Assembly (NCBI GenBank): GCA_016794125.1
Contig: JAEUKT010000002.1
Location: 1,365,769 to 1,429,768, forward strand
Direction: 5' to 3'
DNA length: 64,000 bases
Origin: Alphaproteobacteria bacterium
GTDB lineage: Bacteria; Pseudomonadota; Alphaproteobacteria; Micavibrionales; UBA2020
Below, in pieces: positions 23,915 to 48,141 of the stretch. Positions within the stretch are counted from its first letter, which is position 1, and each line of letters begins with the position of its first letter. The position numbers were made by a program, and so were the translations under genes. The notes under the pieces were generated by a model. It saw only the letters and a program-made list of their open reading frames with translations, was not told the DNA's origin and did no database searches.

Positions 23915-24021
23915 CGTTGATTAATATAGTGTTTTTGGGATGAAGAAGGGAGTGCTTCATAAGTTATTGATATATCAAAGAAAAAGAGCCGTGCCAAAAC
24001 GCGTCAAAAACGACAGCTTTC

Positions 24022-24050
24022 TTGACCTGAAAAGCCCTAAACTGTAGCGT
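24022..24050 (+). promoter_or_regulatory. Candidate tRNA promoter
   Basis: TTGACC at 24022-24027 and TAGCGT at 24045-24050 with a 17-base spacer, preceded at the -10 by TG-like bases. The transcript would start about 10 bases before the tRNA. The -10 is weak. Confidence 0.4.
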
Positions 24051-24064
24051 AGCAAACGATTTCG

Positions 24065-24150
24065 GCAGGCGTGGCGGAACGGTATACGCAGCGGACTTAA
24101 AATCCGCAGGGAGCAATCCCGTGGGGGTTCAAGTCCCCCCGCCTGCACCA
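24065..24150 (+). tRNA. tRNA-Leu, anticodon TAA
   Basis: An 86-base tRNA with CCA encoded. The acceptor stem GCAGGCG pairs with CGCCTGC, the anticodon stem GCGGA/TCCGC encloses loop CTTAAAA with anticodon TAA (24098-24100), a variable arm of class II length (GGGAGCAATCCC region) follows, and the T arm is GGGGG-TTCAAGT-CCCCC. It reads codon TTA, which is rare in this G+C-rich genome. Confidence 0.97.
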
Positions 24151-24158
24151 ATGCTTCA

Positions 24159-24380
24159 TCAGTTTTTCGAAGGGCCGGGCAGCCAAAAATATTTGGCAGG
24201 AGTTTTCTGCGCGGCTTGCTGGTCTTGCTGATCGATGGCTTGCGTCGCTTCGGGATTTTTGGCGTCCAGATTATTGACGAGCGTTTGCAGCCCATAACCG
24301 GATCCGAACAGCAGAGAGGCTGTGAGGGTATAGGTGGCGAAAATTTTGGCTAATCGTTTTTTCTTGGGATTGATAGGCAT
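24159..24380 (-). CDS. Small single-helix membrane protein downstream of the porin
   Basis: A 73-residue protein starting MPINPKKKRLAKIF, with one hydrophobic stretch (ATYTLTASLLFGSGYGLQTLV) that could be a membrane anchor or uncleaved signal, then a Gln-rich soluble tail. ATG 24380 has a weak GGA 8 bases upstream; an alternative TTG at 24398 overlaps the porin stop as TTGA. It lies directly behind the porin and is probably on the same transcript. No family recognised. Confidence 0.5.
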   Translation of the reverse strand: MPINPKKKRLAKIFATYTLTASLLFGSGYGLQTLVNNLDAKNPEATQAIDQQDQQAAQKTPAKYFWLPGPSKN

Positions 24381-24394
24381 GGTATTCGTCCGGT

Positions 24395-25138
24395 TCAAGG
24401 GAAAGCGCGGGTGATCGTGGCGACGGCGCGGGCTTCGCAGCCGTCAGGGCAGTCCGCATTGCCGAGGTTGGTGTCGTAGTATGCGATATTAAAGGTGAAA
24501 TTTTCCCAAGTGTAGGAAAGCCCGCCTGTCCAGTCGGTGTAATCAGCAACGCCGAAGGCGGCTTCGTCATCAATCGACTGGCGGCCTATGGCGGCGTTGG
24601 CAGTGATGCCCGTGCTGAAAACAGGAACGCTGGCAGCGCCGTTGACGTACACAGCGGTACCGGAACCCGCGAAATAATCCGGTGAAACGAAGACGGAGCC
24701 TGTGACAGTAGCAGGTCCGACAGGTGCGGAGGCTGCCACCTTGCTTTCCCAGTAATTATAGTCAAGCGAGTCGTTCGCGCCAGGATAAGCGTAATAGATA
24801 GCCCCTGTATCGAAAGAGACAGGACCCCATGACCATTTGTAGCCGACAGACAGGTCTAGTTCCAGGTTTGCTTGACCGCCGTCATTAAAATCGACATTCG
24901 ATCCCCAGAGACCGAGATAGGGGCCTGTGGATTGCCCGAAAGAAAGCGAACCTTGAAGCGCGGGATGCTCGTCGTTTTGCGTGATGCCGCGAAAAACGTA
25001 GTCGCTTGTAACGGCAACCGAGCCAGAGGGATTGGCGAAGAAGTTGTAAACCGCGCCATTTGCGTTGTCTGCCGCAATAGCGTTGCTTGTTGCCAGCGCA
25101 GCAAAAATTCCTGAAAAGATCAAAATCCGGATTCTCAT
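24395..25138 (-). CDS. TorF-family putative porin
   Basis: A 247-residue outer membrane protein with signal peptide ending SNAIA. The mature part begins with SGSVAVTSDYVFRGITQNDEHPALQGSLSF, a hallmark of the TorF/TIGR02001 family, and continues as alternating amphipathic beta strands ending in an aromatic-containing C-terminus (TITRAFP). It probably forms a small barrel for solute uptake. It diverges from kup, and a cluster of shared sequence motifs lies between them, so the two may be controlled together. Confidence 0.9.
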   Translation of the reverse strand: MRIRILIFSGIFAALATSNAIAADNANGAVYNFFANPSGSVAVTSDYVFRGITQNDEHPALQGSLSFGQSTGPYLGLWGSNVDFNDGGQANLELDLSVGYKWSWGPVSFDTGAIYYAYPGANDSLDYNYWESKVAASAPVGPATVTGSVFVSPDYFAGSGTAVYVNGAASVPVFSTGITANAAIGRQSIDDEAAFGVADYTDWTGGLSYTWENFTFNIAYYDTNLGNADCPDGCEARAVATITRAFP

Positions 25139-25197
25139 GGTTTCACCGTTGAAGCGTTGATTGAGGAAACATTGGCCCCAAGCGGTCTTGCTGTCGT

Positions 25198-25275
25198 GTA
25201 AAAAGCGCGTAAAAAAGCGCCCGCCATGGCATTGGAATAGAATGTAAATACGCTTATTTACGGGATTTTTACGCG
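25198..25275. promoter_or_regulatory. Cluster of five GTAAAWA motifs between porin and kup
   Basis: GTAAAAAGCGC at 25198, GTAAAAAAGCGC at 25209 and GTAAATACGC at 25244 on the plus strand, plus GTAAATAAGCG (25251-25261) and GTAAAAATCCC (25262-25271) on the minus strand. The central pair forms GTAAAT-N6-ATTTAC, and CGCGTAAAAA (25206) with TTTTTACGCG (25266) form a perfect 10-base inverted pair around it. This looks like a multi-site operator for a dimeric response regulator; KdpE encoded downstream is the obvious candidate. Confidence 0.6.
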
Positions 25276-25325
25276 ACCTCCGCGGCAGTCGGCCTAATAA
25301 TCAGGCCAAAGTAATGGAGGACGCC

Positions 25326-27248
25326 ATGCAAACAATGCAACACAGCGAAACGGGAGAATCTGCGCCTTCCGCAGAATATCAGTCTAAATTGTGGAAGCTC
25401 ACGGTGGGTGCCGTAGGCGTTGTTTATGGCGACATCGGCACCAGCCCGATTTACACCTTGCGGGAATCATTAAAGCCCGTGATCGAGGGTACGGCTGTGG
25501 CTCAGGCGGATGTTTTAGGCATTCTGTCCTTGATCATCTGGTCACTTATCCTTATCCCCACCATAAAGTACATTACGATCCTGTTACGCGTGGATAATCA
25601 TGGCGAGGGCGGGACGCTTGCATTAATGGCATTGGCGCGCAGCGTCACCTACCGAAACACGACGATATTCCTTTTCTTCGGCATGCTCGGCGCGGCGTTG
25701 TTCTATGGCGACGCGATACTGACGCCTGCATTGTCGGTATTATCAGCCTTGGAAGGGTTGGAGGTTGTGACGCCTGCTTTCACGCCGTATGTTATACCTG
25801 CGACACTCGCGATTATTATCGCGCTCTTCCTCTTCCAGAAGCATGGTACCGACAAAGTCTCCACGTTTTTCGGTCCGATTTGTGTTATCTGGTTCTCGGT
25901 GCTTGCTGTGACCGGAGTCCTGCATATTCAGGAGGAGCCAGCCATACTGCTCTCCTTTAACCCGCTCTATGCCATGACCTTCATTGTTCATCATGGCCAC
26001 ATCGCTTTTATTGCCCTGGGAACAGTCTTTCTTGCTGTCACGGGGGCCGAGGCGCTGTATGCCGATCTGGGTCACTTCGGCAAAAAGCCTATCCGCATGG
26101 CCTGGCTGTGGTTTGTCCTTCCCTGCCTTGCGCTAAACTATCTTGGACAGGGCGCGATGGTTCTTCACGACCCGACAACGCTGGACAACCCCTTTTTCAA
26201 GCTCGTGCCTCCGGAATGGACAATCCCGCTTGTCATCATCACAACGCTGGCGACGATCATCGCCAGCCAAGCCGTCATCACCGGCGCATATTCACTTACC
26301 AAGCAGGCTGTAAACCTTGGTCTTTTGCCAAGAATGGAAATTCGTCACACATCTGCAATACATACGGGACAGATTTATGTGCCGCAGGTGAACTGGATTC
26401 TGATGGTCGGAGTCATTCTGCTGGTCGTGATGTTCAAGTCTTCGGGCGCGATGGCTGCTGCCTACGGCATCAGCATCACGGGCACGATGGTTTTAACAGC
26501 CATCATGGTGTTTTTCATCATCTGGAATGTGTGGGGCTGGCCTGTATGGAAGGCGGCTGCGCTGATGGTGCCATTCCTGATTATCGATTGCGTCTTTCTG
26601 GGTTCTAACATGATGAAGATTGCAGAAGGCGGCTGGGTCACGCTTGCCGTCGCGGCGGTCATGGTGCTGTTGATGGCCACCTGGATAAAAGGAAGCTTCA
26701 TCCTGAACAGCCGCGCCCGAAAACGGGAAATCCCGCTGGAGCGTTTCATCCGGGACTATAAAATACTGTACCCGAAAGTGAACAAGGCGCATGGCACTGC
26801 GGTTTTCTTCGCAACCGATCCGACGCGCACCCCCACGTCTCTATTGCAAAATATTCGCCATAACAGGGTTATCCACGAGAAAAACATTATCCTCAATGTC
26901 AAAATCGAACCCCTGCCTTATATTGCCGAGGAAGGGCGTGCTGTGATTACCCATCTCAACGACGAGTTCTGCGTTGTTCTGTTGCGCTTCGGTTTTCAGG
27001 AATATCCCGATGTGCAGGAACAGCTTATCAAGCTGAACAATACACCCGGCAGCGGAATCAAAATCGATTGGGAAGAGATATCCCTGTTTCTGTCGCGCCG
27101 CGTTCTGAAGGCCAATCCCCATTACGGATTGCCCGCCTGGCAGGATATTATCTATATCTGGATGAGCAAGCATGCGGCTGAACCTACCGACTTTTATAAA
27201 CTTCCCGTAGGCCGAGTCATCGAGATTGGCAAGCAAGCGTTAATATGA
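25326..27248 (+). CDS. kup: Kup-type potassium uptake transporter
   Basis: A 640-residue inner membrane K+/H+ symporter. It has the family opening GVVYGDIGTSPIYTLRESL, about twelve membrane helices (residues 15-460) including FYGDAILTPALSVLSALEGLEV and VTGAEALYADLGHFG, then a soluble C-terminal domain. ATG 25326 is chosen because GGAGG lies 5 bases before it; the upstream in-frame ATG at 25314 overlaps that site. The stop overlaps the start of the next gene (ATGA), tying this transporter to a KdpD-type sensor. Confidence 0.96.
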   Translation: MQTMQHSETGESAPSAEYQSKLWKLTVGAVGVVYGDIGTSPIYTLRESLKPVIEGTAVAQADVLGILSLIIWSLILIPTIKYITILLRVDNHGEGGTLALMALARSVTYRNTTIFLFFGMLGAALFYGDAILTPALSVLSALEGLEVVTPAFTPYVIPATLAIIIALFLFQKHGTDKVSTFFGPICVIWFSVLAVTGVLHIQEEPAILLSFNPLYAMTFIVHHGHIAFIALGTVFLAVTGAEALYADLGHFGKKPIRMAWLWFVLPCLALNYLGQGAMVLHDPTTLDNPFFKLVPPEWTIPLVIITTLATIIASQAVITGAYSLTKQAVNLGLLPRMEIRHTSAIHTGQIYVPQVNWILMVGVILLVVMFKSSGAMAAAYGISITGTMVLTAIMVFFIIWNVWGWPVWKAAALMVPFLIIDCVFLGSNMMKIAEGGWVTLAVAAVMVLLMATWIKGSFILNSRARKREIPLERFIRDYKILYPKVNKAHGTAVFFATDPTRTPTSLLQNIRHNRVIHEKNIILNVKIEPLPYIAEEGRAVITHLNDEFCVVLLRFGFQEYPDVQEQLIKLNNTPGSGIKIDWEEISLFLSRRVLKANPHYGLPAWQDIIYIWMSKHAAEPTDFYKLPVGRVIEIGKQALI

Positions 27249-28726
27249 TTAACCTATTGTTTACAGCCACTTCCCCGACTTATTGCCCGCAAACGCCGTA
27301 TCGGAATATACTCCGTTCCGTGAGCAGACAGGTAGTAGATGCTGTGACCACCAGGAAACGAAACGCGCCAATCAGATATTTTCTTGCAGCGGCTTTGGTC
27401 GCTTGCCTGACCATTCTCAGTTACAGCCTGCGCCCGCTTATATCTGAAACCGATATCATCATGGTTTTTCTGGTCGGTGCGGTGGTGTCCGCTGTATGGA
27501 CTGGCCGTGGACCGGCCATACTTTATTCTTTCCTGAGCGTCAGCGCATTTAACTTTTTCTTTATCGAGCCGCGCTTCGAGTTCAATGTCTATAATTCATC
27601 CTACTGGCTGACATTTACGGTGATGTTCTTTGCCAGCGCTGTCATTTCCACTCTGGCGGCAAGACTGAAAGATCAGGTCTATCTGGCGGAGCGCCGCGAG
27701 CGCGAGGCGCGAATACTCTATGAACTGCTGAAAGACCTCAGTGCCGCGAGAGCAAAAGATGAAATGGCTCTCTCCCTTTTGCGCCATGTGAAGGGTGTGC
27801 TGCAATCGAAAGTCTGCATACGGTCTCCGGAAACAGTTTTCGGTGACCAGTTGTCGCAAATATCCCTGGCCTTGCCGATCAAGGGCTATGGCACACTTGA
27901 AGTTGAAAGCGGGCATGCTTTGCCGGAGGACCAGCGGCGTGTGCTGGAAACTTGTGTCGCGCTATTTGTTTCGGTCATGGAGGGCGCGGCTAAGGCACAG
28001 CAGGCCGAGCAAGCCAAGATTCAGGCGGAGACGGAGAAAACGCGCAGTATTCTCCTTAGTTCGGTTTCGCATGATTTGCGGAGCCCCTTGGCGGCGATTT
28101 CAGGTTCTGCGGAAACCCTGTTGCAGAAGTATTCCGGCGAGCCGCTATTATCCTCTATTCGCCTCGAGGCCGGAAGGCTGGCGAGGATTGTCAGCAATCT
28201 TCTTGATATCACCCGGATGGAAACAGGGAATATCAAACTAAATATGATGGCCTACGACCCTTCCGAGATTATCGGCAGCGCGGTTGCCGCCTGCCGAGAG
28301 ACGCTGAAGCAGCATACGCTGACTTTACAGGTCGAGAAGAGGTTGCCGTTTGTTCGCATGGACGGCCTGCTGCTGAGTCAGCTTATGCAGAACCTGCTGG
28401 AAAACGCCGCGCGGCACACACCCGCCGGAAGCGTTATAGATTTTAAGGCTTATATGCGTGAGGGCAGTTTCTGTTTTGTCGTATCCGACAACGGGCCGGG
28501 TATTCCCGCTGGCAGCGAGACGAACATATTTAACAAATTCGTCAGCCTTTCGCCTGAGGGAAAATCCAGGGGTGCAGGTTTGGGGCTGGCGATATGCCAG
28601 TCCATCGTTGCTGCGCATCAAGGCAGGATTTTAGCGCAAAATAAACCAGAAGGCGGGGCAAGATTTGTGGTCGAGTTGCCGCCCTCACTTACTTTGCCGG
28701 AAGCGCGGGAGGCCGCCAATGGCTAA
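27245..28726 (+). CDS. KdpD-like sensor histidine kinase lacking the N-terminal Kdp and Usp domains
   Basis: A 493-residue kinase. After about 45 residues it has the four-helix DUF4118 membrane module of KdpD (FLAAALVACLTILSYSLRP through FNFFFIEPRFEFNVYN), a GAF-like region, the phosphorylated His near residue 275 (SVSHDLRSPLAAISGS) and the ATPase motifs NLLENAARHTP, VSDNGPGIP and GAGLGLAICQS. Full KdpD is about 900 residues; here the KdpD and Usp domains, which sense second messengers, are absent. It starts inside the kup stop and overlaps kdpE, so the three form one operon without kdpFABC. Confidence 0.92.
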   Translation: MINLLFTATSPTYCPQTPYRNILRSVSRQVVDAVTTRKRNAPIRYFLAAALVACLTILSYSLRPLISETDIIMVFLVGAVVSAVWTGRGPAILYSFLSVSAFNFFFIEPRFEFNVYNSSYWLTFTVMFFASAVISTLAARLKDQVYLAERREREARILYELLKDLSAARAKDEMALSLLRHVKGVLQSKVCIRSPETVFGDQLSQISLALPIKGYGTLEVESGHALPEDQRRVLETCVALFVSVMEGAAKAQQAEQAKIQAETEKTRSILLSSVSHDLRSPLAAISGSAETLLQKYSGEPLLSSIRLEAGRLARIVSNLLDITRMETGNIKLNMMAYDPSEIIGSAVAACRETLKQHTLTLQVEKRLPFVRMDGLLLSQLMQNLLENAARHTPAGSVIDFKAYMREGSFCFVVSDNGPGIPAGSETNIFNKFVSLSPEGKSRGAGLGLAICQSIVAAHQGRILAQNKPEGGARFVVELPPSLTLPEAREAANG

Positions 28727-36648: not shown

Positions 36649-37581
36649 ATGCACAGCACCAAAAACCGCATCACCGTCGGCAATACCATCGCCGGAAACC
36701 CGATCGATATCGTGACCTACACGCTGGCCGCGAAAACGGCGGGCAAGCGGGTGCATATCCAGAGCGGCATGCATGGCGGGGAGATTACCTATTGGGTGCA
36801 GCACCGGCTGTATAATTTCCTGAAGGAAAACCTGAGCGCGGGCGAGGTGGTGTTCGTGCCCTGCGCCAATCCGGCGGCATGGGAACAGCGGTCGTATTTC
36901 TACACCTTCGGCAAATTCGATTTGTATGACGGCAAAGACCCCAACACGCATTTCCCCGGCAAGCCGGACGGGTCGCTGCACCAGCGGATCGTGCATGCGC
37001 TGCAAAGCCTCGCGAAAAACAGCGACCTTGGCCTTGACCTGCATACCGCACGCAAGAGCCTGCCCTATGTGATCTTCACGAAGGAATCTTATGCGCCGCT
37101 GGTGCGCGAGGTCGGGCTGAAATACAACTTCCTTGATGACGGCGATCCGTCGGGATCGTTTGATGCGGGGCTTGACCCGCTGAATATCGACAACCTCTGC
37201 ATCGAATGCGGCAGCCATGATGAACATGACGCGGCGAAAATCGAACAAGTGTTTCAGGGCATCCTCCGCCTGCTGGCGCGCCTGGGCATGATTGACAAAA
37301 GCTTGACGGTGCATCCCGCAAACGACAGCTATTGGTTCAGGAAAGACAAAAAGATTTTGACGCGCGATGCGGGTTTCGTGCGCTATGACGTGGAACTGGG
37401 CAAGCCGTTCAAAAAGGGCGACACGCTGTTCACCCTGCACCCGTCATCCGAGCTGGGCGCGGAACAGCCGGAACGCGCGCCCGAAGACGGCGTGATGTAC
37501 AAACACGCACCGACGCATATTTACCGTACTGGCGACGAGACGTTGCATTATATTCCGATGGATGCTCTGGTGAAAATATAG
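36649..37581 (+). CDS. Succinylglutamate desuccinylase/aspartoacylase-like zinc hydrolase (M14)
   Basis: A 310-residue metallohydrolase. Zinc ligands are His42 and Glu45 (SGMHGGE) and His132 (GLDLHTA), with catalytic Glu186 (CIECGSH). These are the AstE/AspA features; the substrate is probably an N-acyl amino acid or a short amide. The C-terminal part (FVRYDVELGKPFKKGDTLFTL) is the beta domain usual in this family. No ast or related catabolic genes are nearby, so the substrate is open. A palindromic repeat follows. Confidence 0.87.
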   Translation: MHSTKNRITVGNTIAGNPIDIVTYTLAAKTAGKRVHIQSGMHGGEITYWVQHRLYNFLKENLSAGEVVFVPCANPAAWEQRSYFYTFGKFDLYDGKDPNTHFPGKPDGSLHQRIVHALQSLAKNSDLGLDLHTARKSLPYVIFTKESYAPLVREVGLKYNFLDDGDPSGSFDAGLDPLNIDNLCIECGSHDEHDAAKIEQVFQGILRLLARLGMIDKSLTVHPANDSYWFRKDKKILTRDAGFVRYDVELGKPFKKGDTLFTLHPSSELGAEQPERAPEDGVMYKHAPTHIYRTGDETLHYIPMDALVKI

Positions 37582-37585
37582 AAAT

Positions 37586-37708
37586 GCGTCACCCCCGCCT
37601 TGTGCGGGGGTCTGGTAGGCCGTCTGGCCGTCTCATGACTCAACATATGTTAGATTCACGAGACGCGCGGACGCGCTTCCGGATGCCCGCACAAGGCGGG
37701 CATGACGC
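37586..37708. repeat. Palindromic repeat element with two nested hairpins
   Basis: A 123-base element whose 30-base ends (37586-37615 and 37679-37708) are inverted copies matching at 25 positions. Each end is also a hairpin by itself: ACCCCCGC-cttgt-GCGGGGGT on the left and ATGCCCGC-acaag-GCGGGCAT on the right. The inner part adds CGTCTC/GAGACG. It fills the gap between two convergent genes, the usual place for REP-like or small non-autonomous elements. No second copy is in the window. Confidence 0.8.
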
Positions 37709-37734
37709 TGTTTAAAATTATCAGGTAAATTCTC

Positions 37735-39549
37735 TTAACGCCTCGCCACCGGCGCTTTTTTTGGCAGGTTGTCGTTGCCGGTGCCGGGTTTGACGGCGCG
37801 GGCGCGGTATTGGGGGTTTTTCTCGATGTAGCCCTCGCCGAACGCGTCTTTATACAGCTGCTCCAGCATCGTGCGGTAAACGGGGTTCAGTGTGCTGATG
37901 CCGTTTTCGATGATGAAGGGGGAATTCGCGCCGCTGGCGATGCCGGTCACGCGGAACAGTTCCGCGCCGGACGGCGGCAGGTCGCCTTTTTTCAGGCTGC
38001 CGCTGCTGATTTTCACGGTGATGCTGTCGGCGGAAAGATCAACGGGCGAAATTTTCGCGTCTTCGCCCGCGAATTTCCATTCGAATGCGCCGCCCACTTT
38101 GCGGGTGACGGTGTAAACGCCGGCGGGCAGGTCGATCTGCACGGGGGTTTTGCCGTCATAGGCCGCGTCATGGGTCGCAAAAGCCTTGATGTAGAATGAG
38201 CCGGGGCCGGTCGCGTATTTCGCATGGATTTCGGCCGCGTTGTCGCGGATGGCGGACAGCAGGCTGAGGTTTTCCGCCTTTGTGAAATCGGCGTAATGCG
38301 CGAACCACGCCATGCGCGAGAGGCCCGGCACGTTGTTGTTTTCGGCATCGACGCTCATCTGGTCGGTCGGGCCCTGCTGGCGGTCGTTGATTTCGTTGAT
38401 CCAGATTTTGCCGCTGCGGTCGATGATGAGATCCGCGCCAGCCAGCCCCACCTTGCCGGACAGGCCCATTTTGCGGCCCAGCTTGTCGCCGATTTCGGTG
38501 ATCTGGCGCGCAATGTTTTCTTCGTACACATGGCCGATATTGTTGCCAACGCTGTCGCCGGGCTCATTGGCCAGCAGGCGGTCGCCCACAACCTTCAGCG
38601 TCGCGCGACCGGTGACGGAGAACACGTTGCCGGCGTTAATGCCGGCTTCCGCCGCATGCGCCTCGATCAGGGCGAGGTTTTGCGGGTCGGCGCGGTCGAT
38701 GCCGTCGGGCAGGTTGGTCTTGGTCACGCCGCGGCCTTCCTTGGCGGGCAGGGTGTTGCCGACGAAGAAGGACAGGTTTGCCTCGTTCCCCTCGACAAAG
38801 CGCACGACCTTGAACGGGATTTTGGATTTCGAGATATGTTTCACGAATTCATCGGCGGTCGCGATGAAGCGTGTCGGTTCGTAATTTTCGATGGTCGCCT
38901 GCACGACAACCTTGCCCGCTTCGTTCTTCATGCGGTGGTAAACCGCGCGGAGTTCCTTTTCCGGCAGTTTCGACGACACGACTTCCGTCGGGATGACGTA
39001 AGCTTCCAGCCCCGCTTCCTTCAGGATGTGCATCAGGTTGCCCTTGTTTTCAAAAAACAGGCGCGTGTTTTGTTCGTTGCTGGCGACGACATGGGTGTTC
39101 AGCTTGCGGTCGGCGATGTGCTTTTCCCAGCTGTCGGGCGGCGTGATGAAGGCGAAGATCGCGATGTCTTTGTCTTTCAGCAGCGCTTCGGGGATCGTAT
39201 CGACGATCTGTTCCGACATGCCCTTGGGGAACATGTTGATATAGGCGGTGGTGTCGAAATCCAGCCCGTGCTGCGGCACGTTCTTGAACGACGGCTTGCC
39301 TTCCATGCCGCCCACGATCACGGCCTTGCCGCCGACACCGTTGAAGTCGGACAGCAGGCGGCCCTGCGACGGGGAATAGGTGGGCATGACCATCGTCACG
39401 TCGTCGGCGCTCAGTTCCTTGGCCGTCAGCGTGAACGAGACATCAAGCCGCGTTTTCAGGCTGGTGTCGTCTTTTTTGACCGAAAACGAGGTGCCGGGGG
39501 CAGCGCCGGTATGTGCGGAAGTCAGGTTGAATTTGGGCTTGGCGGTCAT
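37735..39549 (-). CDS. Large ATP-grasp protein of unknown substrate
   Basis: A 604-residue cytoplasmic protein. ATG 39549 has GAGGAGG 5 bases upstream. The middle holds an ATP-grasp fold: the nucleotide lysine region VVVQATIENYEPTRFIATA, IPFKVVRFVEGNEANLSFFV, and the metal-binding end GLAGADLIIDRSGKIWINEINDRQQG, where Glu and Asn of NEIND would bind magnesium. ATP-grasp enzymes join a carboxylate to an amine or thiol through an acyl-phosphate. About 190 residues before it form a pre-ATP-grasp-like domain, and a C-terminal 170-residue beta-rich domain (PVQIDLPAGVYTVTRKVG) resembles no partner I know. A peptide or amide ligase of natural-product type is possible. There is no biosynthetic partner next to it. 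Confidence 0.7.
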   Translation of the reverse strand: MTAKPKFNLTSAHTGAAPGTSFSVKKDDTSLKTRLDVSFTLTAKELSADDVTMVMPTYSPSQGRLLSDFNGVGGKAVIVGGMEGKPSFKNVPQHGLDFDTTAYINMFPKGMSEQIVDTIPEALLKDKDIAIFAFITPPDSWEKHIADRKLNTHVVASNEQNTRLFFENKGNLMHILKEAGLEAYVIPTEVVSSKLPEKELRAVYHRMKNEAGKVVVQATIENYEPTRFIATADEFVKHISKSKIPFKVVRFVEGNEANLSFFVGNTLPAKEGRGVTKTNLPDGIDRADPQNLALIEAHAAEAGINAGNVFSVTGRATLKVVGDRLLANEPGDSVGNNIGHVYEENIARQITEIGDKLGRKMGLSGKVGLAGADLIIDRSGKIWINEINDRQQGPTDQMSVDAENNNVPGLSRMAWFAHYADFTKAENLSLLSAIRDNAAEIHAKYATGPGSFYIKAFATHDAAYDGKTPVQIDLPAGVYTVTRKVGGAFEWKFAGEDAKISPVDLSADSITVKISSGSLKKGDLPPSGAELFRVTGIASGANSPFIIENGISTLNPVYRTMLEQLYKDAFGEGYIEKNPQYRARAVKPGTGNDNLPKKAPVARR

Positions 39550-39944: not shown

Positions 39945-39995
39945 ATGAATATTAAAACTATTTTTTCCAAGCCACATTCACGAATCCCGCCATGA
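39945..39995 (+). CDS. Possible 16-residue leader peptide upstream of alpha-2-macroglobulin
   Basis: AGGAGG at 39931-39936 lies 8 bases before ATG 39945, which opens MNIKTIFSKPHSRIPP and stops at 39993-39995. The stop overlaps an ATG (39992, ATGA) in the alpha-2-macroglobulin frame. It is the best ribosome site in the region, so translation may begin here and re-start on the big gene. It could also be chance. Confidence 0.4.
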   Translation: MNIKTIFSKPHSRIPP

Positions 39996-40051
39996 CCTGT
40001 ATAGTCCGCCAAATTCACTTATCCCTTTGCCTCGCCGCCGGAGCCGCTGCC

Positions 40052-43000
40052 ATGAAATCCACCTTCCAGAAATTCTTCGCCGCCACATTGATGGCGGCTT
40101 TTTTTGCGCTTGCCGCGCCCGCGCTTGGCGATACGCCGCTGCCCGTGACCGCGAACAAGGTGGAAGGACCGGTGACGGGGCAGCTGCAGGACGCGATCAC
40201 CCTGAACATCGCCTATGACGGCGGCATTGTGACGAATACCGACAGCGTGGCGGTGCGTTTCTGCATCCCCTCGGTGCGGCTGCCCCGCACCTGCGATACC
40301 CCCGACCGCAAGCTGCATATGGGCGGCAAGCGCCAGCTGACCGGCATCGGCATCATGCCCCCCGTCGCCGGTGAATGGCGCTGGGACGGCGATTACAGCC
40401 TGCGCTTTACACCCGAAAAGGCCTGGCCGGCGGGCGAAAGCTTCCGCGTCGCCATCGACCCTGCCGTTTTCCCCAAAAACGTGGCGCTGAAGGACACGCA
40501 TTTCGTCATTCAGGCGGCGGCGCTGCGTGCGGATGTGGGATCTATCGAGTTTTTCCAGGATTTCAACAATCCCGACCTGCGCGGCGTTTCAACCGCGATC
40601 CACTTCAACACCCCCGTTGCGGCAGAATCCGTCAAAACCCACCTGTCTTATAGAATGGAGGAACTGGGCGAGGCCGCTAAGCCCGAAGACCGCAAGATTA
40701 TTTCAACGATCCCGAACCTGCCGTTCGAGGTGAAACTGTCCGAAGACGGGTTGACCGCCAATGTCACATCCCCCATCACCACTATGCCCGACAAGGAGCG
40801 TTTTGTGGTGGTCGATATCGCCGAAGGCATCACGGCGGCATCGGGCGGCAGGCCGCTGGGCGCGCCCGATCTGTCGAAAAGCAATCCGGAACGCCGCACG
40901 GGCCGCGTGCGCATCCCCAGCATTTACGACTATGCGGAACTCGAGGGCGTGCAGGCGACCATCGTGCAGGACGACCATTACGTGCCGTCGCAGACGCTGG
41001 TGATCGAAAGCAACGTGCCCAAGACGGGCGACGAGCTGGCCGCGAACCTGCATATCTACCAACTGCCCAAGGACAAGCCGCCCGCCGTGAAGGACGGGAC
41101 GCCCGAGCGCGATTACAGCTGGTCGAGCGCATCCGAAGTGACCGACGAGATTTTGAAGGCTTCGGAAGACGTTAAATTTACGCTGGATACCCGCGACGCG
41201 GCGCTGGTGCATGGCGTGAAATTCGATGCGGTGCCCGGCCGCTGGCTGCTGGTGCGCGTTTCCAAGGGCATGAAATTCAAAGGCGGTTACGTGCTGGGCG
41301 CGAACCATGACGATACGGTGGTTGCCCCCGAATACACGAAAGAAGTCAAAATCCTGAGCGACGGCGCGCTGATGAGCCTGAGCGGGGAGCGCAAGATGTC
41401 GCTCTATTCGCTGGGCGCGTCGAAAATCCGGTTCGAAGTGGGGCGCGTGCTGAACGACGATATCGCGCATCTGGTCAGCCAGACGGGCGGCAGCTTCCAG
41501 AGCCCGTACTTCAGGAATTATAATTTCGGACAGGAAAACATCAGCGAAAAATTCACCAAGGAGCTGGATCTGTCGGGCGCCGACCTGCGCAAGCCGCAAT
41601 TCAACGCCTTCAGCCTTGCGCCGTATTTGAAAATGCCGTCCGGTGAAAAGGGCGCGCAGCCGCCCAAAGGCAAGGGCTTGTTCTTCGTCACCATCAAGGC
41701 GCTGGCGAAGGATGCGGAGGGCAGGGAGCAGGAAGTGTCGAGCGACAAGCGCTTCATTCTCGTCTCCGACCTCGGCATCGTCGTGAAAACGGCGGCGGAT
41801 GGAAGCCAAGATGTATTTATCCAGTCGATTGCAAAAGGTATTGCGGTTGGTGACGCTCGCGTGGAAGTGATCGGTACCAACGGCGTTGCGGTCGCAACCG
41901 TGCGCACCGATGCGCAGGGCCATGCCGTGATCCCGCCATTGAAAGGCCTGATCGACGAAAAACGCCCCGTCGCATATATTGTGCGTCAGGGCGACGACAT
42001 GGCGTTCATGCCCTATGACAGCAGCGACCGTTCGCTGGATTATTCCAAATTCGACACCGACGGCATGAGCGCGTCGGATGCCGGCTTGCGCGCCTACCTG
42101 TTTTCCGACCGCGGCGTGTACCGCCCCGGCGAACAGGTGCATATCGGCATGGTCGTGAAGCAGGGTGACTGGGCAAAGGATTTGACCGGCGTGCCGCTGC
42201 AGCTGGAAATCACCAACCCGCGCGGGCAGGTGATCGACAACCCCGTCGTGAAACTGCAGGCATCGGGCGCGGCGGAATACAGCTTCAGCACGCGCGACAC
42301 ATCGCCGACCGGCAGCTATGCCGCGCGGCTTTACATCACCAATGGCGGCAGGACGGTTGACCAGTTGGGCAGCGTGAATGTGCGGGTGGAGGAATTTATC
42401 CCCGATACGCTGAAAATATCCACCGTCTTCAACAAACCCGCGCCCAAGGGATGGATGACGCCCGACGGGCTGAACGCCGAAGTGACGCTGGCGCATCTGT
42501 ATGGCGCGCCTGCCGTCGATCACCGCATCAAGGCGACGTTGCGCGTCGATCCCGCCGGTTTCAGCTTCAAGGAATATCCCGATTACGCGTTTTTCGATGC
42601 GGCGCGCACGGATGCCAGCTTCGACCAGTCGATCGGCGAAGCGCAGACGGATGCGGACGGACGCGCGGTGTTCGAGCTGCCGCTGGCGCAGTTCGGTAAA
42701 TCGACCTATAGGCTTGCCTTTGGTGCCGAAGGTTTCGCGCAGGATTCCGGCCGCAGCGTTTTTGCAAGCGGCAACGTGCTGGTATCCGCGCTGAAATACG
42801 TCGTGGGCGTGAAAACCGACGGCAATATCGGCTATATCAACAAGGGCGAACAGCGCGGCATCCGCCTGATCGCGGTCGATCCGCAGCTTGCGCCTGTTGC
42901 CGTGGCAGGACTGACGGCATCGGTGACGCAGGTCACCTATGTCTCGACGCTCATCAAAAACGAAAGCGGTGCGTATGAATACCGCTCCGTCGCAAAGGAA

Positions 43001-45841
43001 ACGCAGGTGTCGCAGTCGCCGGTCGACATTCCCGCAGCCGGGCTGGACTATAAACTCGACAGCGCAGCGACGGGAAATTACGTGCTGACGCTGGCCGATG
43101 CCGACGGTTTGACACTGCACAAGGTCAATTATTCCATCGTCGGTGAAGGCAACATGATCGACCATGCGCGCAAGGACGCGGTCATCAGCGTGCGCCTCGA
43201 CCGTGAAAAATACGCGGCGGGCGACACGATCAACCTCAGCATCACATCGCCCTATACCGGCACGGGGCTGGTGACGATTGAAACGGATAAAGTTCAGGCG
43301 TTCAAATGGTTCAGGACGAAAACCACCAGCACGGTGCAGTCGATTACCCTGCCGAAAAACTTCACAGGCAAGGGTTTCGTGAACGTGCAATTCGTGCGCT
43401 CGCTTGATTCAAAGGAAATCTATACCACGCCGCTTGCCTATGCCGTGCAGCCGTTTTTGGTCGATACCGCGACCATCGACAGCCGCATCACGCTGGCGGT
43501 GCCGGAGCGTATCAAGCCGGGTGAAGACCTTGCGATCACCTACAGCACGAAATCCCCGTCGAAAATCATCGTCTATGCGGTGGACGAGGGTATTTTGCAG
43601 TATGCGCGGTATAAAACGCCCGATCCGCTGGATTTCTTCGTCAACCGCCGCGCGCTGCAGGTGGCGACCGCGCAGATCCTTGATTTGCTGATGCCGGAAT
43701 ATTCGTTGCTCCGTGCCGCAACGGGTGGCGACGGCGGCGGGCCCGATGGACGCAGCGTCAACCCCTTCAAGCGCAAGACCGAAGCCCCCGTGGCGTTCTG
43801 GTCGGGCGTGATCGATGCGGGCAAAACGCCGCAGGTGCTGCATTACAAAGTGCCGGATTATTTCAACGGCAACCTGCGCGTGATGGCGGTTGCGGTATCC
43901 GATACCGCGATGGGTGCTGCTTCGACCAAGGCATTCGTGAAGGGCGATGTGATTATATCGCCCAACGTGCCGGTGTTCGCAGCGCCCGGCGATACCTTCC
44001 GCGTCGGCCTCAGCCTTGCCAATAATCTGGCGGGTTCCGGCAAGGATGCGAAAATCAAGCTGGTCGTCAGCCCGTCCGAACATCTGGAGGTTGTCGAGGG
44101 CGCGGAAAGCGACGTGACTGTTGCCGAAAACGCCGAGGCCAAGACCGCTGTCATGGTGCGCGCGAAAGACGTTTTGGGTGGCGCGACATTGACATTTACG
44201 GCGACGCTGAACGGCGTGACGGCAAAATATGAAGCGACACTCAGTATCCGTCCGCCGCTGCCCAGTATGACCGCGCTGCAAAGCGGCTATGTGGAGAAAG
44301 GCGACAAGACCGTAGCGCAGGACCGCGACCTTTACAGGGAATTCGCGCATGCCGACGCATCGGTCTCGACGCTGCCGGTCAGCCTGATCCCCGGTTTGGC
44401 GCAATACCTCGACCGTTTCCCCTATGGCTGCACCGAACAGACGGTCAGCCGCGCTTTCCCCGCCGTGACGCTGTACGGGCAGAAAGATTTGGGCGGCGAC
44501 AATACGGTGGTGACGGAAAGCGTCGTCAACACCATGCGCCGGTTACGCGAATTGCAGAACAGCCGCGGCGGCTTCGGCTACTGGTGGTATGGCGGCGAGG
44601 CGAATGATTTCGTCAGCGTCTATGCGCTGGATTACATGACACGCGCCAAGGAAAAACATCTGCCCGTGCCGGATGCGACTTTCCGCGACGCGCAAAATTA
44701 TGTGCGCGACATGGTTAACGGCGCGCCCGCGTCGCTGGACGAAGCGCGCGTGCAGGCATACGGCATCTATATCCTGACGCGTGGCGGCATGCTGACGGCG
44801 AATTACCTGCCGCATCTGCTGCAATACCTTGACGCGAATTATAAGGCCGAATGGAAAAACGACCTGACGGCGGTTTATATCGCGGCTTCGTACCGCTTGA
44901 TGCAGCTGGTGCCGGAAGCAAACGCGCTGCTGTCGGAATTCACGCTGGGTGATCCGGTTTACTGGCGCGAACATGCGCGATATGAAAGCAACTGGATGTT
45001 CTATAACAGCCTGAACCGGTATGCGCAGTATATGTCGGTCGTGTCCGACCATTTCCCCGACATGCTGGGCAAGCTGGACCGCAATATCCTGTTCCGCATC
45101 GCCAATTTCATCGGGGAAGGCAGCTATAACACGCTGTCGTCGTCCTATGCGATCATGGCGTTCAGCGCCTATGGGCAGGCATCGACCGGCGCTGTCGGCA
45201 GCAACCTGACCATCAGCCAGAAAGGCGCGCAATTGCCGCTGACGGGCGAGGTGGTGAAGCGCGCGGAACTGGCGCTGGAAAAATCGGATGTCGCCTTTGC
45301 AGGCGGCGGCGATTACGGGCTGTTCTACCAGATCGCAACCGACGGCTATGACCGCGACGCGGCCAAAAACCCGATCGAGGACGGGTTGGAAATTTCCCGC
45401 ACCTATCTGGGCAAAGACCACAAACCTGTCGCCGATGTCGCGCTGGGCGATACGGTCGATGTCGTGATCCGCATGCGCGCGCATGACGACAAGACGCTGG
45501 ACAGCATGGCGCTGGTCGATCTGCTGCCGGGCGGTTTCGAGCTGGTGCCGCAAAGCATCGCCAAGCCCGTCGTCGCAAGCGAAGACGGCGAGGAAGAAGC
45601 GGAAACCGCAGCCCCGGATACGTCTTGGCTGGATGGTAACCTGTGGCAGACCGAAGCCGTCGATGCGCGCGATGACCGCGTGATCGCCTTCGGGTCGGTT
45701 GCGGCGGACGAAGTGGTGTATCACTACAGTATCAAGGCCGTGAACGCGGGCAGCTTTACCGTGCCGCCCGCATATATCGAATCCATGTATGACCGCGGCG
45801 TGAAGGCGCGCGGCGTGACGGGGGTTATCACGGTCAAATGA
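40052..45841 (+). CDS. Bacterial alpha-2-macroglobulin with thioester motif
   Basis: A 1929-residue exported protein that traps proteases. ATG 40052 has GGAG 8 bases upstream and starts a classical signal peptide (MKSTFQKFFAATLMAAFFALAAPALG), so the protein is probably soluble in the periplasm, not a lipoprotein. A frame start at 39992 would add 20 residues. Macroglobulin beta-domains fill the first 1100 residues (YRPGEQVHIGMVVKQGD marks MG3-type repeats); the bait region is not defined by sequence; the thioester motif YGCTEQT is near residue 1460, followed by the alpha-toroid and receptor-like domain. The stop overlaps the pbpC start (ATGA), the standard alpha-2-macroglobulin/PBP1C pairing. 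Confidence 0.95.
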   Translation: MKSTFQKFFAATLMAAFFALAAPALGDTPLPVTANKVEGPVTGQLQDAITLNIAYDGGIVTNTDSVAVRFCIPSVRLPRTCDTPDRKLHMGGKRQLTGIGIMPPVAGEWRWDGDYSLRFTPEKAWPAGESFRVAIDPAVFPKNVALKDTHFVIQAAALRADVGSIEFFQDFNNPDLRGVSTAIHFNTPVAAESVKTHLSYRMEELGEAAKPEDRKIISTIPNLPFEVKLSEDGLTANVTSPITTMPDKERFVVVDIAEGITAASGGRPLGAPDLSKSNPERRTGRVRIPSIYDYAELEGVQATIVQDDHYVPSQTLVIESNVPKTGDELAANLHIYQLPKDKPPAVKDGTPERDYSWSSASEVTDEILKASEDVKFTLDTRDAALVHGVKFDAVPGRWLLVRVSKGMKFKGGYVLGANHDDTVVAPEYTKEVKILSDGALMSLSGERKMSLYSLGASKIRFEVGRVLNDDIAHLVSQTGGSFQSPYFRNYNFGQENISEKFTKELDLSGADLRKPQFNAFSLAPYLKMPSGEKGAQPPKGKGLFFVTIKALAKDAEGREQEVSSDKRFILVSDLGIVVKTAADGSQDVFIQSIAKGIAVGDARVEVIGTNGVAVATVRTDAQGHAVIPPLKGLIDEKRPVAYIVRQGDDMAFMPYDSSDRSLDYSKFDTDGMSASDAGLRAYLFSDRGVYRPGEQVHIGMVVKQGDWAKDLTGVPLQLEITNPRGQVIDNPVVKLQASGAAEYSFSTRDTSPTGSYAARLYITNGGRTVDQLGSVNVRVEEFIPDTLKISTVFNKPAPKGWMTPDGLNAEVTLAHLYGAPAVDHRIKATLRVDPAGFSFKEYPDYAFFDAARTDASFDQSIGEAQTDADGRAVFELPLAQFGKSTYRLAFGAEGFAQDSGRSVFASGNVLVSALKYVVGVKTDGNIGYINKGEQRGIRLIAVDPQLAPVAVAGLTASVTQVTYVSTLIKNESGAYEYRSVAKETQVSQSPVDIPAAGLDYKLDSAATGNYVLTLADADGLTLHKVNYSIVGEGNMIDHARKDAVISVRLDREKYAAGDTINLSITSPYTGTGLVTIETDKVQAFKWFRTKTTSTVQSITLPKNFTGKGFVNVQFVRSLDSKEIYTTPLAYAVQPFLVDTATIDSRITLAVPERIKPGEDLAITYSTKSPSKIIVYAVDEGILQYARYKTPDPLDFFVNRRALQVATAQILDLLMPEYSLLRAATGGDGGGPDGRSVNPFKRKTEAPVAFWSGVIDAGKTPQVLHYKVPDYFNGNLRVMAVAVSDTAMGAASTKAFVKGDVIISPNVPVFAAPGDTFRVGLSLANNLAGSGKDAKIKLVVSPSEHLEVVEGAESDVTVAENAEAKTAVMVRAKDVLGGATLTFTATLNGVTAKYEATLSIRPPLPSMTALQSGYVEKGDKTVAQDRDLYREFAHADASVSTLPVSLIPGLAQYLDRFPYGCTEQTVSRAFPAVTLYGQKDLGGDNTVVTESVVNTMRRLRELQNSRGGFGYWWYGGEANDFVSVYALDYMTRAKEKHLPVPDATFRDAQNYVRDMVNGAPASLDEARVQAYGIYILTRGGMLTANYLPHLLQYLDANYKAEWKNDLTAVYIAASYRLMQLVPEANALLSEFTLGDPVYWREHARYESNWMFYNSLNRYAQYMSVVSDHFPDMLGKLDRNILFRIANFIGEGSYNTLSSSYAIMAFSAYGQASTGAVGSNLTISQKGAQLPLTGEVVKRAELALEKSDVAFAGGGDYGLFYQIATDGYDRDAAKNPIEDGLEISRTYLGKDHKPVADVALGDTVDVVIRMRAHDDKTLDSMALVDLLPGGFELVPQSIAKPVVASEDGEEEAETAAPDTSWLDGNLWQTEAVDARDDRVIAFGSVAADEVVYHYSIKAVNAGSFTVPPAYIESMYDRGVKARGVTGVITVK

Positions 45842-48141
45842 AGCGGGTAAGGCGGCGCATTTTCATTGCCTGTGTGCTGGCGCTGCTGGTGCCGGCTGCG
45901 CTGTTCCTGGCATGGAAACCGCCGCTGCTGGAGGGCACGGGTTTTTCCCGCGCCGTGTTCGCGCGCGACGGGCAATTGCTGCGCCTGACGCTGGCGGGGG
46001 ATCAGGCCTACCGGCTGTTCACGCCGCTATCCGATATTCCCCCGCAGATGAAGGAAGCGGTGCTGCTGCACGAAGACCGCCATTTTTACAGCCATCTCGG
46101 CATCAATCCTGTTTCCATGCTGCGCGCGTTTTTCCAGACCTATGTCGCGGGCGGGCGGCGGCTGGGCGCATCGACGCTGTCCATGCAGCTGGCGCGCATC
46201 AAATACGGCATCAACAGCCGCCGCGTGGGCGGCAAGCTGTGGCAGATCGCGCGCGCCATGCAGCTGGAAATGCATTACAGCAAGGATGAATTATTCGAGG
46301 CCTACCTGAACCTTGCGCCATACGGTTACAACATCAACGGCATTGGTGCGGCGAGCTTTATTTATTTCCACAAACAGCCGCGCGATCTGACACTGCCCGA
46401 GGCGCTGACGCTGGCCGTGCTGCCGCAAAGCCCCGCCCGCCGCGCGCCGGAGCGTGGCCAGCCGGTCAAGGCGGCGCTGAACGACGCCCGCAACCGCCTG
46501 TTCGCCAGATGGGTGGCGGAACATCCCGAAGACGCGTCGCGCAGAATATTCTTCGCCCTGCCGTTGACCGTTTACGGCACGCGCGACCTGCCGTTCGATG
46601 CGCCGCATCTGGCGCAGGACCTGCTGGAGTCAACCGATGCGCGGCGCGTGACATCGACGATCAATATCAATATCCAGCGGCTGGCGGAAAAGGTGCTGCG
46701 CCAATATGTGCGCGACCGCCGCGACACAGGGTTGCAGAACGCCAGCATGATTTTGGTGAACACCCAGACGATGGAGGTGGAAAGCCTGGTCGGATCATCC
46801 GATTTCCACGACGCGCAGATCGAGGGGCAGGTGGACGGCACGCGCGCGCGCCGGTCGCCGGGATCGACGCTGAAGCCGTTCATTTATGCGCTGGGGCTGC
46901 AGCAGGGCGTGATACACCCCGCCAGCATCCTGGGCGACGCGCCCGCCAGTTACGGCAGTTATACGCCCGACAATTTCGAACGCGATTTCCGGGGACCGAT
47001 CAGCGCGCGCAACGCGCTGCGCTTCAGCCGCAACATTCCGGCAATACGGCTGGCGGCGCAGCTGAAATCGCCCGACCTGTACGAATTCTTGAAACAATCG
47101 GGCATCGCGCAGCTGCGCGACCGTAAAACATACGGCCTGTCGATCGTGCTGGGCGGGGCGGAGGTGACACCGCGCGAGCTGGTGTCGCTCTATGCCATGC
47201 TGGCAAATGACGGTGTTGAAAAGCCGCTGGCGTTCACGCGTGACGCGCAAAAGCCCGAAGGTAAGACATTGCTGAGCCCCGAAGCGGCCTTCATGACACT
47301 TGATATGATGGCCGATACGCCGCGCCCCTATGCCATGCAGGACCCGCTGAAGGTATATTGGAAGACCGGCACATCGAACGGATTCCGCGACGCATGGACG
47401 GCGGGCGTGTTCGGGCATTATGCGATGGTCGTATGGGTCGGAAATTTCAGCGGCAAAAGCAACCCCGCGCTGGTGGGCCTGCATGCCGCAGCGCCGCTGT
47501 TTTTCGCGCTGGCCGATGCGGTGCAGGGCATCGCGCCGCAGCGCGACCTGATCGCGGCCAAGGCCGCGCACCTGAATTTGCGCAAGACTCCGATCTGCGC
47601 CACCACCGGCGACCTGTCGCTGGATGACTGCCCTGCGCGCGCCAGTACATGGTTTATCCCGGGCGTGTCGCCGATTGCGCGCAACGATGTGTACCGCAAA
47701 ATCCTGGTGGATACCGAAACGGGCAAGCGCGCCTGCCGCATGACGCCGACCACCGTGTGGCGCACCTATGAAGTCTGGCCGAGCGATTTGTCGCAGGCGC
47801 TGCAGCGCGCGGGCATCAATAAACAGCCGCTGCCGCCGATGGGCGATGATTGCGATGCGGCGCAAGCGGCGGAGGGGCAGGCGCCCGTGATATTGTCGCC
47901 GCAGCCGAAGATCGAATATCACGCGCGCATCGACGATACGGCGGAGGCGGTGACGTTTACCGCCAGCGTCGATGGCGATGTGCGGGGCGTCAGCTGGTTC
48001 GTGGGGAATACCTTTATCGGGCAGGCCGCAGCCGGTGCCCCGCTGTTCTGGCGCCCGCAGCCCGGCACATATAATGTGCGCGCGATTGACGACCGCGGGC
48101 GCAGCGGTACGACCGTCATGAAGGTTTCGCTGGCGCAATAG
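45838..48141 (+). CDS. pbpC: Penicillin-binding protein 1C
   Basis: A 767-residue inner membrane protein with one N-terminal anchor, acting in the periplasm on peptidoglycan. The glycosyltransferase domain has Glu near 78 in LLHEDRHFYSHLGINP and ASTLSMQLARI; the transpeptidase domain has Ser343 in SPGSTLKPF, SRN near 397 and KTG at 509 (WKTGTSNGFRDAW). The C-terminal BiPBP domain (VTFTASVDGDVRGVSWFVG) is present. Always associated with alpha-2-macroglobulin, it is thought to repair walls breached by attackers. Confidence 0.96.
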   Translation: MKRVRRRIFIACVLALLVPAALFLAWKPPLLEGTGFSRAVFARDGQLLRLTLAGDQAYRLFTPLSDIPPQMKEAVLLHEDRHFYSHLGINPVSMLRAFFQTYVAGGRRLGASTLSMQLARIKYGINSRRVGGKLWQIARAMQLEMHYSKDELFEAYLNLAPYGYNINGIGAASFIYFHKQPRDLTLPEALTLAVLPQSPARRAPERGQPVKAALNDARNRLFARWVAEHPEDASRRIFFALPLTVYGTRDLPFDAPHLAQDLLESTDARRVTSTININIQRLAEKVLRQYVRDRRDTGLQNASMILVNTQTMEVESLVGSSDFHDAQIEGQVDGTRARRSPGSTLKPFIYALGLQQGVIHPASILGDAPASYGSYTPDNFERDFRGPISARNALRFSRNIPAIRLAAQLKSPDLYEFLKQSGIAQLRDRKTYGLSIVLGGAEVTPRELVSLYAMLANDGVEKPLAFTRDAQKPEGKTLLSPEAAFMTLDMMADTPRPYAMQDPLKVYWKTGTSNGFRDAWTAGVFGHYAMVVWVGNFSGKSNPALVGLHAAAPLFFALADAVQGIAPQRDLIAAKAAHLNLRKTPICATTGDLSLDDCPARASTWFIPGVSPIARNDVYRKILVDTETGKRACRMTPTTVWRTYEVWPSDLSQALQRAGINKQPLPPMGDDCDAAQAAEGQAPVILSPQPKIEYHARIDDTAEAVTFTASVDGDVRGVSWFVGNTFIGQAAAGAPLFWRPQPGTYNVRAIDDRGRSGTTVMKVSLAQ

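What the first reader, a model, noticed from the sequence alone, without database searches (positions are those of the whole stretch)
37735..39549. Unclassified 604-residue ATP-grasp protein
Recognisable ATP-grasp end (NEIND) but with an unknown N-terminal and a beta-rich C-terminal domain and no pathway partner. It could be a ligase making an undescribed peptide or conjugate.
Basis: partly seen in the sequence, partly recalled or inferred. Interest (0 to 1): 0.6.

Follow-up and report, generated by a model that had tools for sequence, protein, structure and literature searches.

The report
Amide-making ligase with partner amidase
This bacterial gene encodes an uncharacterised ATP-driven enzyme that probably joins two small molecules, and its constant gene neighbour probably cuts such a bond, so the pair looks like an undescribed make-and-break module whose product is unknown.

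Summary
The protein is real and correctly placed, but lies on the minus strand (ATG 39549, stop 37735; 604 aa). It is an ATP-grasp enzyme: a pre-ATP-grasp domain, an ATP-grasp core with invariant D373, E386, N388 and an "NEINDRQQGPT" end, and a roughly 150-residue beta-rich C-terminal domain with no PDB match when folded alone. It passes no Pfam or NCBIfam cut-off. Its nearest relatives are the uncharacterised PRK06524 family and, more weakly, L-aspartate-L-methionine ligase LdmS. The claim "no pathway partner" is wrong. An AstE/aspartoacylase-type M14 amidohydrolase gene (36649-37581, + strand) adjoins it, and this neighbour is kept in 12 of 12 distinct genomes or contigs that have the ligase. 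It is convergent in eight and co-directional in four, once with overlapping ATGA codons. Of 142 genomes of the order, the 8 with the ligase are exactly the 8 with the close M14 homologue. In one clade the ligase is duplicated around one M14 gene. Best reading: a two-gene module in which an ATP-grasp carboxylate-amine ligase makes an amide or dipeptide-like metabolite and the M14 enzyme hydrolyses it or a related amide. The substrate is unknown. It is a new variant of a known kind, of moderate interest.

The parts
37735..39549 (-). ATP-grasp carboxylate-amine ligase gene, 604 aa (ATG 39549, stop 37735-37737)
   Evidence: full-length homologues at 40-98% identity
39555..39560 (-). Shine-Dalgarno AGGAGG upstream of ATG 39549
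   Evidence: read directly
39070..39459 (-). pre-ATP-grasp domain (residues about 31-160)
   Evidence: whole-model structural matches begin at residues 33-52; boundary is approximate
38290..39069 (-). ATP-grasp core (residues about 161-420)
   Evidence: LdmS profile hit 215-398; profile match to PRK06524 from 161; Ddl hit 342-388
38365..38439 (-). metal/ATP-binding end GADLIIDxxGKIWINEINDRQQGPT (residues 371-395)
   Evidence: D373, E386, N388, R390 identical in 11 of 11 rows
37786..38289 (-). beta-rich C-terminal domain (residues 421-588), no fold match found
36649..37581 (+). AstE/aspartoacylase-type M14 amidohydrolase, 310 aa, conserved partner, convergent to the ligase
   Evidence: PF24827 E 1.6e-17, 64.1 bits vs cut-off 25; adjacency
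37582..37734 (.). 153-base gap between the two convergent genes

Best explanation
A two-enzyme cytosolic module that makes and breaks an amide bond. The ligase binds ATP and Mg2+ in the ATP-grasp cleft, phosphorylates a carboxylate and lets an amine attack the acyl-phosphate, giving an amide or dipeptide-like small molecule. The adjoining AstE/aspartoacylase-type M14 zinc enzyme hydrolyses that product or a closely related amide (turnover or salvage). Shown here: the predicted fold, the invariant catalytic-type residues of both enzymes, and the conserved pairing. Inferred: the reaction type (from superfamily knowledge), that both act on the same molecule, that it is a small molecule and not a protein, and the cytosolic location (no signal peptide seen by eye). 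The substrates are unknown. The Arg normally following Asn in the M14 'NR' substrate-carboxylate pair is Thr/Ser in the window clade but Arg in the second clade, so the two clades probably handle different conjugates.
For: ATP-grasp fold: model pLDDT 81.8, pTM 0.82; 466 PDB matches at E<=0.001; Z 17.0 PurK 3v4s (rmsd 4.6, 342 aligned), Z 16.0 L-amino acid ligase 3vot (4.8, 370), Z 15.7 D-Ala-D-Ala ligase 3r5x (3.7, 266). K169, E256, D373, E386, N388, R390 identical in 11 of 11 rows. Relatedness to amino-acid ligase LdmS: 11 of 11 members hit its profile, best E 4.8e-7, far below cut-off. Partner: PF24827 in 5 of 5 M14 proteins scanned; H42, E45, R81, H132, E186 invariant in 11 of 11. Pairing: an M14 homologue adjoins the ligase in 9 of 9 ligase loci (the tenth, L010, is a Ddl gene) and in G210. 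In 142 genomes of the order the ligase is in 8 and the close M14 (75-100% identity) in the same 8; the other 23 genomes with an M14 match are at 30% identity or less. Adjacency survives an orientation change: convergent in the window clade, co-directional with gaps of 3, 3, -4 and 20 bases in the second clade. In L002-L009 the only strong shared neighbour is this gene.
Against: No substrate, product or activity is shown. The lysine expected before the glycine-rich loop of ATP-grasp enzymes is Gln (Q217) in 11 of 11 rows, though PRK06524 has Gln there too. Convergent genes in the window clade cannot be one transcript. The Arg of the M14 NR pair is absent in 8 of 8 window-type M14 proteins. Structural Z-scores tie carboxylating and ligating enzymes, so the fold does not fix the reaction.
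Confidence: 0.55

Rival explanations
1. The M14 enzyme acts upstream or at the end: it releases the amine or carboxylate that the ligase uses, or removes a protecting acyl group, as steps of one biosynthetic path rather than reversing the ligase.
For: Named relatives of the M14 protein are deacylases such as DoeB (E 6e-12, below cut-off; 6twm/6twl). Ligases are duplicated around a single M14 gene in L008 and G210, which fits a multi-step path.
Against: No other conserved pathway gene in any locus.
Confidence: 0.2
2. Writer and eraser of a protein or peptide tail, as in tubulin tyrosine ligase with cytosolic carboxypeptidase or RimK with its protease (comparison recalled).
For: ATP-grasp plus M14 is the composition of the tubulin system (recalled); no conserved transporter or other pathway gene nearby.
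Against: Best structural matches are small-molecule enzymes of the carboxylase/PurK/amino-acid-ligase kind; the M14 belongs to the AstE/AspA subfamily, known for small N-acyl amino acids (recalled).
Confidence: 0.12
3. A carboxylase-like or phosphate-transferring enzyme, not an amide ligase.
For: Top fold matches are PurK and biotin carboxylases; the nearest profile relative is labelled biotin carboxylase (PRK06524).
Against: The label is by similarity only; Z-scores of ligases are tied or nearly so; sequence hits go to LdmS in 11 of 11 members and to D-Ala ligases in 6 of 11; pairing with an amidohydrolase.
Confidence: 0.1
4. A graspetide-type peptide-cyclising enzyme.
For: It is an ATP-grasp enzyme without an assigned substrate.
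Against: No conserved small precursor gene recognised beside it (frames under 60 aa were not compared); carboxylase-type architecture; no Pfam or NCBIfam hit to a graspetide family.
Confidence: 0.03

Closest known systems
PRK06524 / NF005096 'biotin carboxylase' family (uncharacterised as far as seen)
   Same: ATP-grasp core with Gln in place of the usual Lys and a similar metal-binding end; hhalign probability 95.9, E 5.6e-9 over residues 161-532 (controls under 1%)
   Different: N- and C-terminal parts alone show no relation. Its neighbours are different: in L070 an OKR decarboxylase and a penicillin acyltransferase-like protein. An M14 protein lies near 1 of 7 loci.
L-aspartate-L-methionine ligase LdmS (NF047900; that PDB 7r8p is LdmS is recalled)
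   Same: Same superfamily; hit over 215-398; 7r8p shares R-Q-x-G-x-T after the metal ligand
   Different: 26.9 bits against a cut-off of 475; the match ends before this C-terminal domain
L-amino acid ligase (PDB 3vot), PurK, biotin carboxylase
   Same: Pre-ATP-grasp / ATP-grasp architecture, Z 16-17
   Different: 8-13% identity in the listed structural alignments; C-terminal domain alone does not match
AstE/aspartoacylase and DoeB (partner gene)
   Same: PF24827 domain above cut-off, zinc and catalytic residues
   Different: Below the DoeB equivalog cut-off, 45.2 vs 402.7; NR pair changed to NT/NS in the window clade

Membership tests
ATP-grasp superfamily | ATP-grasp fold with pre-ATP-grasp domain | tested here: met
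ATP-grasp superfamily | Asp and Glu/Asn metal ligands near the C-terminal end of the core | tested here: met
   D373, E386, N388 in 11 of 11; correspondence to Ddl residues is by the weak profile match 342-388 and recall
ATP-grasp superfamily | Lys in the strand before the glycine-rich loop (usual, not universal; recalled) | tested here: not met
   Gln217 in 11 of 11; Gln also in PRK06524
LdmS (NF047900) | score over curated cut-off | tested here: not met
   26.9 vs 475 bits
PRK06524 (NF005096) | score over curated cut-off | tested here: not met
   window protein not listed at E<=1; 2 of 11 members match, best E 0.0018; none in own genome at 1e-10
PRK06524 (NF005096) | homologous N- and C-terminal domains | tested here: inconclusive
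   hhalign probabilities under 1%, but both alignments are shallow; the full-length match runs to 532
YheC/D ATP-grasp (PF14398) | score over gathering cut-off | tested here: not met
   19.4 vs 26.8 bits for the window protein
D-Ala-D-Ala ligase (PF07478) | score over gathering cut-off | tested here: not met
   14.1 vs 24 bits
PGM1-type peptide ligases | PGM1 family relationship | not tested
   no PGM1 profile or structure was compared
Glutathione synthetase / RimK-like | fold match in that family | tested here: inconclusive
   only the best 50 rows were seen
AstE_AspA (PF24827), partner gene | score over gathering cut-off | tested here: met
   64.1 vs 25 bits
AstE_AspA (PF24827), partner gene | zinc ligands H..E and H, catalytic Glu | tested here: met
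   H42, E45, H132, E186 in 11 of 11; roles recalled
DoeB (TIGR02994), partner gene | score over curated cut-off | tested here: not met
   45.2 vs 402.7

The most novel reading that the evidence does not exclude
An undescribed synthetase-hydrolase module for a new class of conjugated small molecules (storage, signalling or detoxified amides). The ligases carry a C-terminal domain of new fold that selects or delivers the substrate, and duplicated ligases around one hydrolase add successive units in one clade.
Probability: 0.25. Interest if true: 0.65.

Novelty: new variant of a known kind. Interest (0 to 1): 0.42.

Why it matters
The conserved hydrolase turns an orphan ligase into a testable pathway: two soluble enzymes and no other conserved gene seen, so product discovery is feasible in vitro. 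If true, it adds a new amide metabolite, a ligase family outside all curated models used here, and possibly a new domain fold. It is present patchily in Micavibrio-type Alphaproteobacteria and in a distant alphaproteobacterial clade.

Tried and rejected
Rejected: 'no pathway partner'. Rejected: member of LdmS, YheC/D, D-Ala ligase or PRK06524 (scores below cut-offs). L010 (Acidobacteria) is a D-Ala-D-Ala ligase gene by its sequence as read by eye and was dropped from the adjacency count. In one search (398 genomes of the phylum) the 3 matches besides the own genome were short partial ones (E 4.9e-4 to 0.0099, loci L054-L056), not followed. No match in plasmids, phages or viral contigs. No anti-phage defence model for ligase, M14 or the L002 insert. 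The C-terminal domain search in viral structures gave nothing (best E 0.029). The C-terminal profile in 289 genomes of the class hit only members of the same ligase family: the window gene and three places in G210. LdmS and glutathione-synthetase-like chains are not in the 50 rows shown; this says nothing against them.

A mistake of mine: the first PRK06524 alignment contained wrong reading frames (L061, L066, L067), so its hhalign result and the 'prk' profile hits to long proteins are not used. The alignment was rebuilt from 8 checked members and controls were run. The M14 profile search does not depend on it. In the tree script one ligase fragment (G210, contig C250) was left out because the stretch I translated held stops.

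Literature: 10 searches. I read passages only in PMC4000134 and PMC8939145; the rest I saw as search listings with starts of abstracts. None of what I saw describes this ligase-M14 pair. The JBC paper on LdmS that I asked for by its DOI (recalled) is not held; what I say of LdmS beyond the profile name is recalled.

Full report
What is there. The window 37735-39549 holds a 604-residue gene on the minus strand, with ATG at 39549 preceded by AGGAGG and a stop at 37735. The plus strand of the same interval is interrupted by a stop. Full-length homologues at 40-98% identity make up alignment A1 with 11 rows; 153 columns are listed as invariant, including I384-N-E-I-N-D-R-Q-Q-G-P-T395. This is a conserved protein and not a chance reading frame. 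The first 30 residues of the window protein are unlike most homologues and have low predicted confidence.

What kind of protein. No Pfam or NCBIfam model reaches its cut-off: YheC/D 19.4 vs 26.8 bits, D-Ala ligase 14.1 vs 24, LdmS 26.9 vs 475. All 11 members hit the LdmS profile weakly, best E 4.8e-7. The predicted structure (pLDDT 81.8, pTM 0.82) matches ATP-grasp enzymes: 466 PDB matches at E<=0.001, Z 17.0 for PurK, 16.0 for L-amino acid ligase 3vot, 15.7 for D-Ala-D-Ala ligase 3r5x. These are nearly tied, so fold comparison gives the superfamily and the carboxylase-type plan, not the reaction. K169, E256, D373, E386, N388 and R390 are identical in 11 of 11 rows; Q217 stands where a Lys is usual (recalled), also in 11 of 11. 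The PRK06524 family, found in 11 of 299 phylum genomes at E<=1e-10 with 5 over its cut-off, is the nearest relative by profile: hhalign probability 95.9, E 5.6e-9 over residues 161-532, and it has Gln at the same place; control comparisons stayed under 1%. Its N- and C-terminal parts alone are not detectably related.

The C-terminal domain. Residues 421-588 folded alone give a confident beta-rich model (pLDDT 88.5, pTM 0.77) with no significant match in the PDB (best E 0.059; best Z 2.6) or among viral models (best E 0.029). Its profile hits only the same ligases in 289 genomes, and no member hits any Pfam family better than E 0.037. Whole-model alignments do run to residue 582, so a strongly changed carboxylase-type C-terminal domain is not excluded. 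AlphaFold DB was not available.

The partner. The gene at 36649-37581 (+) encodes a 310-residue protein of the AstE/aspartoacylase branch of M14 (PF24827, 64.1 vs 25 bits; PDB 3fmc E 4.4e-21). H42, E45, R81, N99, H132 and E186 are invariant in 11 of 11. A homologue adjoins the ligase in 9 of 9 ligase loci L001-L009 (L010 excluded as a Ddl gene). L001-L006 correspond to six of the eight ligase genomes. Counting distinct genomes or contigs: eight in the window's order (one, G015, has only a 192-residue ligase match close to a contig end) plus L007, L008, L009 and G210, so 12 of 12. In the window clade the genes are convergent, with gaps of 153, 139, 167, 72, 55 and -4 bases in the window, L001, L003, L004, L005 and L006, and 1512 in L002, where a 452-aa frame lies between. 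In the second clade (L007, L008, L009, G210) they are co-directional with gaps of 3, 3, -4 and 20 bases, the overlap being ATGA in L009. The second clade has duplicated ligases: ligase-M14-ligase in L008, and ligase-ligase-M14-ligase fragment in G210. In L002-L009 no other neighbour is strongly shared with the window (restricted to window 20001-64000 and the stored flanks; one weak 29% match in L004). In 142 genomes of the order, the 8 genomes with the ligase and the 8 with the close M14 (of 31 with any M14 match) are the same. The ligase is rare outside: 2 of 385 class genomes, one of them the window's own, and beyond the own genome only partial weak matches in 398 phylum genomes. Trees of both proteins split into the same two clades with full support (midpoint root, 14 and 11 rows).

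Mechanism. From established ATP-grasp chemistry (recalled), the ligase should phosphorylate a carboxylate and couple it to an amine. From AstE/AspA chemistry (recalled), the partner should hydrolyse a small N-acyl amine or amino acid amide with zinc. Their linkage suggests that they handle the same or successive amides. This step is inference. The M14 'N-R' pair, which binds the substrate carboxylate in the family (recalled; 3fmc has NR aligned there), is N-T or N-S in 8 of 8 window-type proteins, and N-R in 15 of the 15 other M14 proteins where my pattern found the motif; in 8 more it found none (31 examined). In the second clade it is N-R in 4 of 4. So substrate use probably differs between clades.

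Verdict. It is a new variant of a known kind. The product is unknown, and no literature seen here describes the pair.

Noticed in passing
window 39992-48141: Bacterial alpha-2-macroglobulin (PF11974, PF17973, PF00207 and others) followed with overlap by a transglycosylase-transpeptidase with BiPBP_C domain: the usual YfhM/PbpC-type pair (name recalled).
   Followed up: partly
L002:9883-11238: A 452-aa reading frame sits between ligase and M14 gene only in this locus; begins like an ADP-ribosyltransferase ('LYHGTS', by eye) but has no Pfam or defence-model hit.
   Followed up: partly
window 37591-37609 and 37685-37701: Two inverted copies of a short palindrome-like repeat (CCCGCCTTGTGCGGG type) in the gap between the convergent genes, read by eye.
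   Followed up: no
L070-L076: The PRK06524 relatives share neighbours of their own: a nitrilase-like protein (by eye, 6 of 7 loci), a roughly 930-aa protein with an OKR decarboxylase domain and a penicillin acyltransferase-like protein (both scanned in L070 only), an apparently uncharacterised gene set.
   Followed up: partly
window 24001-28000: G+C content falls to 0.52-0.53 against 0.56-0.63 in the rest of the window.
   Followed up: no
window 39459-39549: The first 30 residues of the ligase are replaced by an unrelated sequence relative to L002, which is 86% identical overall.
   Followed up: no
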